DNA of 64,000 bases from Solirubrobacter deserti (GTDB lineage: Bacteria; Actinomycetota; Thermoleophilia; Solirubrobacterales; Solirubrobacteraceae): positions 1 to 64,000 of the forward strand of contig NZ_JAPCID010000012.1 of assembly GCF_027587175.1 (NCBI RefSeq). The letters run 5' to 3'. Position 1 is the stretch's first letter, and every line of letters begins with the position of its first letter. Made by a program: the position numbers and the translations under genes. Below the pieces are notes generated by a model. It was not told the origin of the DNA, searched no databases, and saw only the letters and a list, made by a program, of their open reading frames with translations. Positions 34,647 to 39,740 of the stretch are shown one piece after another.

Positions 34647-35597
34647 ATGAGCACCGCCGCGTACGAGCACGCCTACCAGGAGCTCATCGAGCCGCACCGG
34701 CGCGAGCTGCACGCGCATTGCTACCGGATGCTCGGCTCCGTGCAGGACGCGGAGGACGCGCTGCAAGAGGCGTTGCTGCGCGCGTGGAAGGCGTTCGACC
34801 GCTTCGAGGGCCGCGCGCAGCCGAAGACGTGGCTGTACCGGATCGCGACCAACACGTGCCTGGACGCGATCGCGCGCCGCAAGGGCAAGCGCGAGCTGCC
34901 GATCGACCGCGGCCCCGACGAGGCGCCGCTGACCGAGATCGCCTACCTGGAGCCGTATCCGGACGACCCCGGCGCCTCCTACGAGCGGCGCGAGAGCGTC
35001 GAGCTGGCGTTCATCGCCGCGCTCCAGCACCTGCCGGCCACCCAGCGCGCGGTGCTGATCCTGCGCGAGGTCCTGGGCTTCAGCGCCAAGGAGACCGCCG
35101 AGCTGCTCGACACCACGCCGGCGTCCGTGAACAGCGCGATGCAGCGCGCCCGCGCGGCGGTCGACGAGCGGCTCCCGGACCAATCCCAGCAGGCGACGCT
35201 CCAGCGGCTCGGCGATCGAGCGGTCGCGGACATCGTGGAGCGCTACGTCGAGGCCTGGAACCGCGGCGACGTCGACGCCGTGGTGCACATGCTGGCCGAA
35301 GACGCCACGTTCAGCATGCCGCCGAACTCCGAGTGGTTCCGCGGCCACGACGCCATCCGCGCGTTCCTGCCCACCGGCCCGCTGTCGATCCCGCGCATCT
35401 TCGTGCCCACGCGGGCCAACGGCCAGCCCGCGTTCGGCACCTACAAGCTGATCGACGGCGAGTGGCTGCCGAACGCCATCCACGTGATCACGCTGGATGA
35501 CCGCGGCGCGATCGTCGACGCGGTCGCGTTCCTCGATCCGGCGCTGTTCGACGTGTTCGGGTTGCCGGGTAGGCCTCCGACATGGCGAACCCACTGA
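34647..35597 (+). CDS. ECF-type RNA polymerase sigma factor with SnoaL-like C-terminal domain (SigG-like)
   Basis: 316 aa. Sigma region 2 (HCYRMLGSVQDAEDALQEAL, AFDRFEGRAQPKTWLYRIAT) and region 4 (LPATQRAVLILREVLGFSAK, TPASVNSAMQRARAAVDE) are complete. A C-terminal extension of about 120 residues (ERYVEAWNRGDVDAVVHMLA) is a SnoaL/NTF2-like domain, as in SigG/SigJ-type sigma factors, where it regulates activity in place of an anti-sigma factor. No anti-sigma gene is adjacent. It diverges from the PBP gene with 40 bases between starts, which may link it to envelope stress (inference). Confidence 0.9.
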   Translation: MSTAAYEHAYQELIEPHRRELHAHCYRMLGSVQDAEDALQEALLRAWKAFDRFEGRAQPKTWLYRIATNTCLDAIARRKGKRELPIDRGPDEAPLTEIAYLEPYPDDPGASYERRESVELAFIAALQHLPATQRAVLILREVLGFSAKETAELLDTTPASVNSAMQRARAAVDERLPDQSQQATLQRLGDRAVADIVERYVEAWNRGDVDAVVHMLAEDATFSMPPNSEWFRGHDAIRAFLPTGPLSIPRIFVPTRANGQPAFGTYKLIDGEWLPNAIHVITLDDRGAIVDAVAFLDPALFDVFGLPGRPPTWRTH

Positions 35598-35746
35598 AGG
35601 ACGACGATCGCCGCGAGCCGGACGCAGAGCCCGAGCGCGGCGAGCACAACCGCATCGGCTACTACAACGCCGACGAGCAGCGCGAGCACGACGAGCGCGG
35701 CAGCCAGAGCCCCGGGCCGGGAGAGCCGCCGCCCGAGGACGCATAG
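35582..35746 (+). CDS. Small acidic hypothetical protein (54 aa)
   Basis: Starts MANPLKDDDRREPDAEPERG and ends PGEPPPEDA; highly charged and probably disordered. It overlaps the 3' end of the sigma-factor gene by 16 bases, so it would be translated by coupling. I do not recognise it; composition and frame are consistent with a real small gene, and a second small acidic protein (37116-37253) occurs nearby. Confidence 0.55.
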   Translation: MANPLKDDDRREPDAEPERGEHNRIGYYNADEQREHDERGSQSPGPGEPPPEDA

Positions 35747-35777
35747 GGGGACGTTGACGGACCTCCACGAGAAAGCG

Positions 35778-35807
35778 TGGACATCCGAGCATCTGAAGCC
35801 GTACCAT
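35778..35807 (+). promoter_or_regulatory. Promoter of the aminotransferase leader
   Basis: -35 TGGACA (35778-35783, five of six to consensus), 18-base spacer, -10 TACCAT (35802-35807). The -10 ends 8 bases before the ATG of the leader ORF at 35816, implying a leaderless transcript. A 6-bp hairpin TCCACG/CGTGGA (35764-35781) overlaps the -35. Confidence 0.55.
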
Positions 35808-35815
35808 TGACCCAG

Positions 35816-35848
35816 ATGAGGCGAGTAGCCCGCTCCGTCGCTCCGTAA
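35816..35848 (+). CDS. Short leader ORF (MRRVARSVAP) before the aminotransferase gene
   Basis: Ten codons, ATG to TAA: MRRVARSVAP. It uses AGG, CGA, GTA and TAA, all rare in this GC-rich window. It starts 8 bases after a good -10 and ends 2 bases before a 6-bp GC hairpin, with the aminotransferase ATG 58 bases further on. The layout is that of an attenuation leader, with Arg or Val as possible sensed residues. It could also be chance. Confidence 0.38.
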   Translation: MRRVARSVAP

Positions 35849-35850
35849 GA

Positions 35851-35865
35851 CCCGGCCCGGCCGGG
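35851..35865 (+). terminator. GC hairpin after the leader ORF
   Basis: CCCGGC-CCG-GCCGGG, a perfect 6-bp stem. The sequences GACCC (35809-35813) and GGGTC (35874-35878) can also pair around it, giving an alternative longer structure. It may act as an attenuator. No U-run follows. Confidence 0.4.
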
Positions 35866-35906
35866 AGAGCGGCGGGTCCACGTCCACTCAACCCGGAGCT
35901 TCACCC

Positions 35907-37106
35907 ATGGCCATCTCGCCTCCCGCGCCGCTTGCCGGCGCCCCCCTGTCGGACCGTCTCGCCTCCACGCAGTCCTCGCCCGTGCGCGAGCTGCTGCAGA
36001 TCGCGATGCGGCCGGAGATCATCTCGCTCGCCGGCGGGCTGCCCGCGCCGGACACGTTCGACGTGCCCGGCCTGCGCGCCGCGTTCGACGAGGTTCTTGC
36101 CGGCCCAGATGCGATCCGCGCGCTGCAGTACTCCACCACCGAGGGCGACCCCGGCTTACGGGCCCGCCTCGCGGCCTTCATGTCCACGCGCGGGCTCGAT
36201 GTCGCCGGCGACGACCTGCTGATCACGACCGGCTCCCAGCAGGCGCTGGGCCTGATCGCGAGCGCGCTGCTGAACCCCGGCGACGTCGTGCTCGTCGAGG
36301 ACCCGACCTACCTCGCGGCGCTGCAGGCCTTCCAGCTGGCGGACCTGCAGGCGGTGCCGATCCCGTGCGACGACCACGGCCCGGACCCCGAGGGCCTGCT
36401 TGAGCTCGCCCGCCGCCACGGCGCGAAGGTCGCCTATCTGATCCCGACCTTCCAGAACCCGACCGGTCGCACGATGCCTGCCGCGCGGCGCGCCGCGATC
36501 GCCGACGCAGCCGCCCAGGCCGGGCTGTGGCTGGTGGAGGACGACCCGTACAGCGCGCTGCGCCTGGAGGGAGAGGACGCGCCGCTGCTGGCGTCCTACG
36601 CGCCGGAGCGCACGCTCGTCATCCAGACGCTGTCCAAGGTCCTCTCGCCGGGCCTGCGGATCGGCTACGTGCGCGCCCCCGAGTCCCTGCACGGCCCGCT
36701 CGCGGTGGCCAAGCAGGCGGCGGACCTGCACACGTCGACCGTCAACCAGCTCGCCGCCGAGCGCTGGCTGGCCACGCACGACCTCGGCGACCACATCGCC
36801 TCGCTCGCCGCGCACTACCGCCCGCGCCGCGACGCGCTGCGCTCCGGGCTGCGCGAGCACCTGCCCGCCGGCGCGCGCATGACCGAGCCCGAGGGCGGCC
36901 TGTTCATCTGGGTCGAGCTGCCGGCCGGCCACGACGCCGAGGTGATCCTCCCGCGCGCGCTGGACCGCGGCGTGGCCTTCGTTCCGGGCAAGTACTTCTA
37001 CGCGGGGGAGCCGCGTCCGGAGACGCTGCGCGTGTCGTTCGCGACCGCCACGCCGGAGGAGCTGCGCGAGGGCGCCGCCCGTCTCGGAGTGGCCTGCAGG
37101 GGGTAG
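35907..37106 (+). CDS. PLP-dependent aminotransferase (fold type I, AAT-I / 2-aminoadipate-type)
   Basis: 399-aa class I/II aminotransferase of the group that includes LysN/2-aminoadipate and related MocR-catalytic enzymes. Visible signatures: PEIISLAGGLPAPDTF near the N-terminus, ITTGSQQALGLI, TFQNPTGRTM, VEDDPYSALRL and the PLP lysine in VIQTLSKVLSPGLRIGYV; the substrate-carboxylate Arg is in PETLRVSFAT. A GGAG ribosome site lies 8 bases before ATG35907. The transcript appears to start at a leader ORF (35816-35848). The amino donor is not fixed by sequence; lysine/aminoadipate or branched-chain substrates are likely. Confidence 0.9.
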   Translation: MAISPPAPLAGAPLSDRLASTQSSPVRELLQIAMRPEIISLAGGLPAPDTFDVPGLRAAFDEVLAGPDAIRALQYSTTEGDPGLRARLAAFMSTRGLDVAGDDLLITTGSQQALGLIASALLNPGDVVLVEDPTYLAALQAFQLADLQAVPIPCDDHGPDPEGLLELARRHGAKVAYLIPTFQNPTGRTMPAARRAAIADAAAQAGLWLVEDDPYSALRLEGEDAPLLASYAPERTLVIQTLSKVLSPGLRIGYVRAPESLHGPLAVAKQAADLHTSTVNQLAAERWLATHDLGDHIASLAAHYRPRRDALRSGLREHLPAGARMTEPEGGLFIWVELPAGHDAEVILPRALDRGVAFVPGKYFYAGEPRPETLRVSFATATPEELREGAARLGVACRG

Positions 37107-37115
37107 GCACCTGGC

Positions 37116-37253
37116 ATGACGGAACGGCCCCGCCCTGACATGGACAAGGTGCGCGACGCCATGCGCGAGCACGACGAGCGCGAGGACACTGCGCCCGAGC
37201 CGGAGCCCGAAGAAGCCGGAACGGACGAACCAGACGACGATGGAGACACGTGA
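37116..37253 (+). CDS. Small acidic hypothetical protein (45 aa)
   Basis: Begins MTERPRPDMDKVRDAMREHD and ends DEPDDDGDT. Strongly acidic C-terminal half with a short predicted helix near the start. It sits between the aminotransferase and the aldo/keto reductase and overlaps the latter's start by 14 bases, so it is likely translated in the same operon. Function unknown. Confidence 0.55.
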   Translation: MTERPRPDMDKVRDAMREHDEREDTAPEPEPEEAGTDEPDDDGDT

Positions 37254-37983
37254 GCTCGGCCGCGGCGGGCCGCGCGTGCCCGTCGTCGGCATGGGCACGT
37301 GGCAGACGCTCGACGTCTCCGGCACACGGGACGAGGTCGTGCACACGGCGCTCGACAGCGGCGCCACCTTCCTCGACACCTCGCCGATGTACGGCGAAGC
37401 CCAGCGCGTGCTCGCGCACGGGCTCGAAGGGCGCCGCGACGAGGCGTTCGTCGCCGACAAGCTGTGGACGCCCGACGAAGGCAAGGCCGAGCGCCAGGCC
37501 CGCCGCTCGCTCGACCTCTACGGGCGCGTCGATCTCTTCCAGATCCACAACCTGGTCGCCTGGCGCGCCCGCTTGGACCTGCTCGAGCGCCTCCAGCACC
37601 GCGGCCTGGTGGGCGTGATCGGCGCGACGCACTACTCACCGTCCGCGTTCGACGAGCTCGAGACCGTGATGAAGACGGGCCGGATCGGCGCGATCCAGAT
37701 TCCGTACAACCCGCTCGAGCGCGAGGTCGAGCAGCGGATCCTGCCGCTCGCGGAGGAGCTCGGTCTCGGCGTGGTGGTCATGCGCCCGCTCGGCGCGGGC
37801 CGCCTGACCGCGCGCGTCCCCGCCGAGGAGCTCCTCAAGTGGGTGCTCAGCGACCCGCGCGTGACCGTCGCGATCCCCGCCTCGTCCAAGCCCGAGCGGG
37901 TCCGGAGCAACGCCGCGGCGGGCGACGGCCCGTGGCTGAACCCCGACGAGCGCGAGCGCATCGCCCGCCAGGCGACCGGGTAA
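37240..37983 (+). CDS. Aldo/keto reductase
   Basis: 247-aa NADPH-dependent TIM-barrel reductase. Catalytic residues are recognisable: Asp and Tyr in FLDTSPMYGEAQR, Lys in FVADKLWTP, His in DLFQIHNLV; the cofactor-binding end is TVAIPASSKPERVRSN. It is shorter than the 300-330 aa norm because the C-terminal loop is reduced. Located 3' of the small acidic gene in the aminotransferase unit. The substrate is unknown. Confidence 0.88.
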   Translation: METRELGRGGPRVPVVGMGTWQTLDVSGTRDEVVHTALDSGATFLDTSPMYGEAQRVLAHGLEGRRDEAFVADKLWTPDEGKAERQARRSLDLYGRVDLFQIHNLVAWRARLDLLERLQHRGLVGVIGATHYSPSAFDELETVMKTGRIGAIQIPYNPLEREVEQRILPLAEELGLGVVVMRPLGAGRLTARVPAEELLKWVLSDPRVTVAIPASSKPERVRSNAAAGDGPWLNPDERERIARQATG

Positions 37984-39317: not shown

Positions 39318-39563
39318 TCAACGGCTGCTCACACCGAGCACGTCGATCGCCCCCTCCAGACGCCCCCGGAGCAGCTGCAGATGGCGTTCGTCGGCGCTCA
39401 CGGCGAGCTCGATCCGGTCGTGCGCGTACGTCATGGCCAGGACGCGCGCGCCGCGGCGCTGGCAGATTCCGAGCACGCGCAGCAGAACTCCGGGGCGGTC
39501 GAGGACCTGCACGGACAGCCGCGTGACGGAGGAGGGGGCGACGCCGGGGGGAAGGAGCAGCAT
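39318..39563 (-). CDS. ACT-domain protein (IlvM-like)
   Basis: 81 aa from ATG39563, preceded by an AGAAAGG ribosome site. A single ACT domain (VTRLSVQVLDRPGVLLRVLG, then RRGARVLAMTYAHDRIELAV) like the small IlvM regulatory subunit of acetohydroxyacid synthase, which binds valine or isoleucine. No ilvB, ilvN or ilvC is in the window, so it is an orphan. The upstream leader peptide (39664-39732) has four Ile codons before a terminator hairpin, which fits control by isoleucine supply. The downstream gene is the tandem REC-HTH regulator, probably on the same transcript. Confidence 0.78.
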   Translation of the reverse strand: MLLLPPGVAPSSVTRLSVQVLDRPGVLLRVLGICQRRGARVLAMTYAHDRIELAVSADERHLQLLRGRLEGAIDVLGVSSR

Positions 39564-39638
39564 GGGAGACCTTTCTCGTCCCCGAAGAGAAGCTGCCCGC
39601 GCGCGCACCACCCGCCGACGTTCCCCCAGGAACGACAG

Positions 39639-39665
39639 AGGCCCGCGGTGGAGTTCCGCGGGCCT
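39639..39665 (-). terminator. Attenuator hairpin before the ACT gene
   Basis: AGGCCCGCGG and CCGCGGGCCT form a perfect 10-bp stem around a 7-base loop. The stem overlaps the last bases of the leader-peptide stop codon and lies 76 bases before the ACT start. A ribosome paused on the Ile codons would cover its first arm. Confidence 0.7.
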
Positions 39666-39732
39666 AGCGAATGATGATGGCGATGGAGCAGGCGAAGCCG
39701 TTCGACACGAGATCTGTGGCGAACGGCTCCAT
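39664..39732 (-). CDS. Isoleucine-rich leader peptide (22 aa)
   Basis: Short ORF starting MEPFATDL and ending SIAIIIR, with the codons ATC-GCC-ATC-ATC-ATT just before the TAG. A -10 hexamer (TAGAGT) lies 8 bases before the ATG with a -35 17 bases further, so the mRNA is probably leaderless. Within it, AGCCGTTCG (39720-39728) can pair with CGAACGGCT (39696-39704), giving an alternative hairpin. Classic leader-peptide attenuation of branched-chain amino-acid genes is the best interpretation. Confidence 0.62.
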   Translation of the reverse strand: MEPFATDLVSNGFACSIAIIIR

Positions 39733-39740
39733 TGCGTCTG

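What the first reader, a model, noticed from the sequence alone, without database searches (positions are those of the whole stretch)
35778..35906. Second leaderless mini-ORF with hairpin, before an aminotransferase gene
A near-consensus promoter (TGGACA-N18-TACCAT) sits 8 bases before the 10-codon ORF MRRVARSVAP. That ORF uses AGG, CGA, GTA and TAA, rare in this window. A 6-bp hairpin and an enclosing GACCC/GGGTC pairing follow before the real start codon. The same geometry as the Ile leader suggests a shared type of attenuation; the sensed residue could be Arg or Val.
Basis: partly seen in the sequence, partly recalled or inferred. Interest (0 to 1): 0.6.

Follow-up and report, generated by a model that had tools for sequence, protein, structure and literature searches.

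The report
Leaderless mini-ORF masks aminotransferase start
In this soil bacterium's genus, the messenger RNA of an aminotransferase gene appears to begin directly with a ten-codon mini-gene whose first codons are complementary to the aminotransferase's own start, so a ribosome sitting on the mini-gene probably decides whether the enzyme can be made.

Summary
The mini-ORF is real and conserved. All six Solirubrobacter genomes held have it, single-copy, upstream of the orthologous aminotransferase. The ATG always lies 7-8 nt after a TAnnAT box, the stop is in register, and in the most divergent species promoter and ATG moved upstream together by three codons, in frame. A 9-bp hairpin (P1) overlapping mini-ORF codons 7-10 pairs in all six, with compensatory changes.

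These arms are the two longest invariant blocks of the alignment and form the only other all-six helix of at least 5 bp; column shuffles reach it in 0.6-1%. In silico, a ribosome on mini-ORF codons 1-7 abolishes the helix, and at codons 8-10 it re-forms (five species; the sixth deviates).

Best reading: a leaderless translational attenuator that hides the start codon. Inferred, not shown: that it regulates, and what it senses (Arg, Val or initiation itself). The long-range helix is invariant, so it has no covariation support.

The parts
35778..35783 (+). -35 element TGGACA
   Evidence: the block CGTGG is kept by eye in 5 of 6 congeners
35802..35807 (+). -10 element TACCAT
   Evidence: TACCAT or TAGGAT 7-8 nt before the mini-ORF ATG in 6 of 6 congeners
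35816..35848 (+). leaderless mini-ORF MRRVARSVAP* (10 codons)
35818..35825 (+). arm A of the long-range helix (GAGGCGAG, mini-ORF nt 3-10), pairs with 35915-35922
35828..35830 (+). arm A, second part (GCC, mini-ORF nt 13-15), pairs with 35909-35911
35835..35843 (+). P1 5' arm (CCGTCGCTC), inside mini-ORF codons 7-10
   Evidence: 54 of 54 cells paired, two pairs with changes on both sides
35867..35875 (+). P1 3' arm (GAGCGGCGG)
35851..35856 (+). P2 5' arm (CCCGGC)
   Evidence: 6-7 bp hairpin in each congener, alignment shifted in the two most divergent
35860..35865 (+). P2 3' arm (GCCGGG)
35894..35898 (+). likely Shine-Dalgarno of the aminotransferase (CGGAG, by eye)
   Evidence: sequence
35907..37106 (+). 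PLP-dependent aminotransferase (399 aa, PF00155)
35909..35911 (+). arm B, GGC: G of the start codon plus first two bases of codon 2
35915..35922 (+). arm B, CTCGCCTC: last base of codon 3 to first base of codon 6 of the aminotransferase

Best explanation
This is a leaderless translational attenuator. The mRNA starts at (or within about 2 nt of) the ATG of a 10-codon mini-ORF. When no ribosome is on it, nt 3-15 of the transcript pair with the aminotransferase's start codon and following codons, 87-98 nt downstream; hairpin P1/P2 bridges the gap, and the gene cannot be initiated. A ribosome that initiates on the 5'-terminal AUG and lingers on codons 1-7 holds the antisense arm, so the aminotransferase start is free when it emerges from RNA polymerase. 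A ribosome that runs on to codons 8-10 or the stop uncovers the arm, the helix re-forms and the start is masked. Rare early codons (AGG, CGA, GTA) and P1, whose foot lies about where the leading edge of an early ribosome would be, would lengthen the open phase. Starvation for the early residues (Arg, perhaps Val) or slow elongation would then raise expression. Shown: conservation, P1 covariation, complementarity, and in-silico opening and closing with ribosome position. Inferred: transcription start, translation of the mini-ORF, regulation, and the sensed signal.
For: Mini-ORF in 6 of 6 congeners, same stop register, no indel from the invariant block to the stop; in L006 the -10 box and ATG are both shifted by three codons in frame. 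P1 paired in 54 of 54 cells, changes on both sides at two pairs; 0 of 300 column shuffles give a 9-bp all-six helix. Over the 146-column alignment only two all-six helices of at least 5 bp exist: P1 (9) and mini-ORF x start (6), whose arms are the two longest invariant runs; column shuffles reach 6 bp in 1.0% (mini-ORF x start) and 0.6% (leader x start). Duplex about -20 kcal/mol in 6 of 6; 19-66 of 1000 window shuffles and 12-36 of 1000 leader shuffles as good. Codon 5 CCT is the only codon-invariant one of 45 amino-acid-invariant columns with an A/T-ending codon, five species. Helix probability 0.76-1.0 in 6 of 6 with 25 or 40 nt of coding sequence. Ribosome at codons 1-7: arm pairing 0.00-0.05; codons 8-10: 0.41-1.0 in five species. 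Leaderless leader peptides are reported in S. lividans (PMC8079986, passages).
Against: The long-range helix shows no compensatory change: 9 of 11 pairs never vary and two are lost in L006. Single-sequence complementarity is only at the few-percent level, and against windows slid along the gene it is ordinary in L006 (308 of 1131 as good) and moderate elsewhere (21-91 of 1125). L006 shows no change in start opening energy with a ribosome at +40 (6.9 free; 6.6-7.6 with), and its helix fell to 0.02 with 120 nt of coding sequence. With 70 nt of coding sequence the energy gain shrinks, in L001 to 5.7 versus 4.1 kcal/mol. Whole-leader folding z-scores are unremarkable in five of six (-1.32 to +0.73; L005 -2.20). 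Only six species of one genus. The mini-ORF's later codons change mostly non-synonymously, so the peptide itself is not under visible selection.
Confidence: 0.5

Rival explanations
1. Classical transcription attenuation: a stalled ribosome on the mini-ORF prevents P1/P2, which would otherwise act as an intrinsic terminator.
For: P1 overlaps mini-ORF codons 7-10 and covaries; ilvB uORF attenuators of this sort occur in Actinobacteria (PMC10272879, abstract; PMC1262725, parts 1-2 of 3 read).
Against: No T-run follows P1; the terminator scan found 0 sites in 35500-36100. It does not explain why the 12-nt block ahead of P1 and codon 5 of the gene are invariant.
Confidence: 0.1
2. Rho-dependent attenuation: translation of the mini-ORF keeps Rho off (or lets it on) the C-rich stretch between P1 and the gene.
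For: The stretch after P1 is C-rich in all six by eye. Rho/uORF control is reported in M. tuberculosis (PMC12810186, PMC11260477: search listing only).
Against: C-richness is common in a 72% G+C genome and was not tested against a null. It does not explain the complementarity.
Confidence: 0.12
3. The two invariant blocks are an inverted pair of DNA sites for a transcription factor (with looping), and the complementarity in RNA is incidental.
For: GGCGAG...CTCGCC is an inverted repeat, 87-98 bp apart (leader lengths).
Against: P1 between them covaries as RNA. The 12-mer elsewhere in the six genomes (16 other places) lies, by eye, in or at the ends of coding-like sequence with no TAnnAT-ATG context. 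The second site would lie inside the coding region.
Confidence: 0.12
4. A protein- or ligand-binding 5' UTR (riboswitch-like) in which the mini-ORF is accidental.
For: Compact structure with an invariant segment. No family is known, so nothing excludes a new one.
Against: No Rfam match at E up to 5 in the leader. ATG spacing to the -10 box and the stop register are kept in 6 of 6, with ATG and promoter co-shifted in L006. The invariant block has a pairing partner.
Confidence: 0.1
5. Ordinary conserved 5' UTR: P1 stabilises the mRNA, and the rest is weak constraint or chance among six related genomes.
For: Only six genomes; the long-range helix is invariant, and shuffles reach it at the 0.6-7% level depending on the null.
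Against: Invariance of A-ending rare codons in the mini-ORF (0 of 13 A/T-ending columns of the gene are codon-invariant over the same six) and of CCT at codon 5.
Confidence: 0.16

Closest known systems
Leaderless leader peptides of Streptomyces lividans TK24 (LeuL, IlvL, ThrL, TrpL; PMC8079986, passages read)
   Same: Mini-ORF of 12-29 codons transcribed without leader, followed by hairpins, some without a U-run; several begin MR/MK with Arg codons.
   Different: Those carry codons of the regulated amino acid and sit before biosynthesis, tRNA-synthetase or transport genes. Here there is no codon run, and the passages read describe no pairing to the downstream start.
LEU element upstream of leuA in Actinobacteria (Seliverstov 2005, PMC1262725, parts 1-2 of 3 read)
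   Same: Leader-peptide codons pair with the translation start site of the downstream gene and enclose further structure.
   Different: There, Leu codons pair with the Shine-Dalgarno box and a pseudoknot is proposed. Here the first codons of a leaderless ORF pair with the start codon and codons 2-6; no Leu run.
erm/cat-type translational attenuators (from general knowledge; PMC8274638 seen in a search listing only)
   Same: A ribosome held on a leader ORF frees the downstream start from a masking helix.
   Different: erm leaders are, as I recall, SD-led and sense an antibiotic through the nascent peptide. Here the leader ORF starts at the 5' end, its peptide tail is not conserved, and the masking strand is its own start region.
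Corynebacterium ilvB-II uORF (PMC10272879, abstract read)
   Same: Genus-restricted conserved RNA motif that turns out to carry a uORF.
   Different: Transcription attenuation with a BCAA-rich peptide.

Membership tests
Leaderless leader-peptide attenuator (actinobacterial) | Short ORF whose start codon is at or next to the transcription start | tested here: inconclusive
   ATG 7-8 nt after TAnnAT in 6 of 6, within the 4-9 nt range reported for S. lividans; no TSS data.
Leaderless leader-peptide attenuator (actinobacterial) | Run of codons for the regulated amino acid | tested here: not met
   MRRVARSVAP and relatives: Arg 2-4, Val 1-2, no run tied to a known product of the enzyme.
Translational attenuator (erm/cat type) | Helix that masks the downstream translation start | tested here: met
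   Predicted in 6 of 6 with 25-40 nt of coding sequence; prediction only.
Translational attenuator (erm/cat type) | Ribosome held on the leader ORF opens that helix | tested here: met
   In silico in five species, deviating in L006; not tested at the bench.
Translational attenuator (erm/cat type) | Stalling signal (drug or amino acid) identified | not testable with these tools
   Needs reporter or toeprint experiments.
Classical transcription attenuator | Intrinsic terminator before the gene | tested here: not met
   0 terminator-like sites in 35500-36100.
LEU element | Leucine codon run pairing with the Shine-Dalgarno box | tested here: not met
   No Leu run; pairing covers the start codon and codons 2-6, not the SD.
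Known Rfam RNA family | Match to a covariance model | tested here: not met
   No match in the leader at E up to 5; none at gathering threshold in the window.

The most novel reading that the evidence does not exclude
A 'start-to-start lock': the 5'-terminal AUG region of a leaderless mini-ORF and the AUG region of the downstream gene mask each other, so both starts are closed together and both open when a ribosome takes the 5' end. The switch would then report leaderless (70S-type) initiation and early elongation speed itself, rather than one amino acid, and could behave as a memory: once closed, it hides the very start that could reopen it.
Probability: 0.2. Interest if true: 0.75.

Novelty: new variant of a known kind. 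Interest (0 to 1): 0.55.

Why it matters
Leaderless leader peptides are known ahead of actinobacterial amino-acid genes, but how those without a terminator act is mostly unclear (PMC1262725, PMC8079986, parts read). Here one is under visible selection, and its own start region is the antisense strand of the gene it precedes. If confirmed, it gives a simple, testable design in which leaderless initiation controls leadered initiation on one mRNA, in Thermoleophilia, where my library searches found no such leader described.

Tried and rejected
Alternative pairing of mini-ORF GCUCC(G/U) with the Shine-Dalgarno: seen in folds of L001 and L004 and possible in L003 and L005, but not in L002 or L006, so not a conserved element. 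A regulon sharing the 12-mer GGCGAGTAGCCC: the 16 other places in the six genomes lie, by eye, in or at the ends of coding-like sequence, and the count in those genomes (22) is close to that of the reversed control pattern (17). A wider family: covariance model R1 hits the six congeners strongly (E 1.2e-15 or better) and ten other genomes weakly (E 0.005-0.05) of 231 in the order; the four weak ones whose alignments I saw are poor, and the others were not followed. It hits 1 of 396 phylum genomes (own) at E 0.001. The search scores only a few candidates per genome, so distant members could be missed. By eye, no such leader in the 24 non-genus ortholog upstream regions printed (two pairs identical) nor in the 70. 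The solved-structure search only says the enzyme resembles multi-substrate/2-aminoadipate aminotransferases; the substrate was not settled.

Caveats: in A4/A5 the P2 arms of L005 and L006 are shifted by one column, which lowers their pair count. L003 and L031, and L004 and L032, have the same leader, so the genus sample is six, not eight. One search's ORF list is unfiltered for spurious G+C-rich ORFs. and the shuffles are simple nulls. In one search the codon count is ungapped, so L005 may be out of register after an indel; the aligned count (45 columns, 1 invariant) is that.

Full report
Where it is. The window lies in a Solirubrobacter genome (G000:C1:873841-937840; the closest named records are S. 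phytolaccae and S. taibaiensis). The gene after the leader, 35907-37106, is a PLP aminotransferase (PF00155), nearest among solved structures to archaeal multi-substrate aminotransferases and 2-aminoadipate aminotransferase. Ahead of it lie an ECF sigma factor (34647-35597) and a small acidic ORF; behind it an aldo/keto reductase.

The observation. Promoter, spacing, ten-codon ORF and rare codons are as described. A promoter of this quality with an ATG mini-ORF 6-9 nt after the -10 box occurs once in the window and in 0 of 30 randomised windows. The hairpin is there, but the enclosing GACCC/GGGTC pairing is not a credible element: it overlaps both real helices and is not conserved.

Conservation. 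The aminotransferase has an ortholog (71-89% identical) in each of the five other congeners held, and each carries the leader directly upstream. The peptides are MRRVARSVAP, MRRVARTVAL, MRRVARSVAL (twice), MRRVAHTVAP and MSRIRRVARTTAP (read). The ATG follows TACCAT or TAGGAT by 7-8 nt in all six. In L005 the intervening bases are all pyrimidines, so the A of the ATG is the only purine available as a start; S. lividans TSSs are reported 4-9 nt from the -10 hexamer, and 97.1% of leaderless ones are purines (PMC8079986, passages). In L006 both the -10 box and the ATG are displaced upstream by three codons, in frame. The stop (TAA four times, TAG twice) is in register in all six. A covariance model of the leader finds these six strongly among 231 genomes of the order (ten more weakly, E 0.005-0.05) and only its own genome among 396 drawn from the phylum, so the element looks genus-specific. 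Family-level and Streptomyces orthologs do not show it by eye; several look leaderless themselves, with TAnnnT about 8 nt before their ATG.

Local hairpin. P1 (CCGTCGCTC / GAGCGGCGG) pairs in 54 of 54 cells, with pair types GC/AU, UG/UA/CG and CG/UA/UG at three positions and changes on both sides at two. No column-shuffled leader of 300 reaches a 9-bp all-six helix. P1's 5' arm is mini-ORF codons 7-10, and the stop codon sits in the joint between P1 and P2.

Long-range helix. The most conserved part of the leader is not in P1: GGCGAGTAGCCC is invariant in all six, third codon positions included, although CGA and GTA are rare (7 and 1 in 3211 codons) and none of 13 A/T-ending, amino-acid-invariant codons of the gene is identical in the same six species. 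Folding leader plus gene start explains it: mini-ORF nt 3-10 and 13-15 pair with CUCGCCUC in codons 3-6 and GGC at the start codon (RNAalifold consensus). Scanning all column pairs of the 146-column alignment finds two helices of at least 5 bp kept by all six, P1 and this one, and the two arms are the two longest invariant runs. Column shuffles give a 6-bp all-six helix in 1.0% (mini-ORF x start) or 0.6% (leader x start); duplex-energy shuffles give 1-7%. On the gene side, codon 5 (CCT) is the only one of 45 A/T-ending, amino-acid-invariant columns identical in five species; in L006, where it is CCC, the opposing mini-ORF base is also changed, so that pair is lost on both sides, while GCC to GCU at codon 2 lets the L006 arm pair through with one bulge. 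No pair of this helix shows a compensatory change, so its support is invariance plus complementarity, not covariation.

Switching in silico. With 40 nt of coding sequence, opening the start region (-5..+13) costs 12.2-14.7 kcal/mol in five species and 3.2-9.8 with a ribosome at codons 1-7. The arm's pairing falls to 0.00-0.05 for codons 1-7, rises to 0.66-0.83 at codon 8, and is 0.99-1.00 at codon 10; at codon 9 it is 0.99 except 0.41 in L005. With 70 nt the gains shrink (L001 5.7 free versus 4.1 at codon 1; L005 11.8 versus 4.8). L006 gives no gain at +40 (6.9 free) and a gain at +70 (10.3 versus 5.9-8.5). Helix probability without ribosome is 0.76-1.0 in all six at +25, +40, +70 and +200, but 0.02 in L006 at +120.

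Mechanism. I read this as a leaderless translational attenuator: an early or slow ribosome on the mini-ORF keeps the gene's start open, and a ribosome that has run on, or none at all, lets it close. The rare early codons and P1 would prolong the early phase. What sets ribosome speed there (Arg or Val supply, a drug, general initiation) is not known. Codon conservation cannot tell, because the same bases are needed for pairing.

Relation to known systems. The kind is known: leaderless leader peptides in Streptomyces (PMC8079986, passages), leader codons pairing with the start site in the LEU element (PMC1262725, parts 1-2 of 3), and erm-type masking helices (general knowledge). I did not find this element or this pairing in the searches made. 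The difference is that the 5'-terminal start region of a leaderless ORF is itself the antisense strand of the downstream start. I file it as a new variant of a known kind.

Side results. In Geodermatophilaceae the same aminotransferase gene has another, unrelated-looking leader with conserved blocks.

Noticed in passing
window 39560-39740, minus strand: Leaderless-looking mini-ORF MEPFATDLVSNGFACSIAIIIR* (ATG at 39732, 8 nt after TAGAGT), then hairpin GGCCCGCGGAACTCCACCGCGGGCC and an ACT-domain gene starting at 39566: looks like a classical Ile attenuator; DNA matched at length in four of five congeners.
   Followed up: partly
L060, L072, L099 (Modestobacter), L083 (Blastococcus), L078 (Geodermatophilus), weaker in L084 (Saccharopolyspora); about 120 nt before the gene: Conserved leader ahead of the orthologous aminotransferase: GGCYCCTYGACCAGGARGCCC...GCGGGACACCCCCCGC...TCCTGGAG then GTG, whose 5' part (CCAGGAGG) is complementary to the Shine-Dalgarno region in several; no Rfam match. 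Possibly an undescribed regulatory RNA.
   Followed up: partly
window 35582-35746 and about 37116-37254: Two small acidic ORFs flank the aminotransferase, one on each side; by eye both contain REHDER. The first has no Pfam or NCBIfam match; the second was not scanned (searches failed on it).
   Followed up: no
L010/L040, L020/L095, L037, L047 (Patulibacter) and many Streptomyces loci: Orthologous aminotransferase genes look leaderless themselves (TAnnnT about 7-9 nt before the ATG), so the Solirubrobacter leader may be a recent addition (by eye).
   Followed up: no
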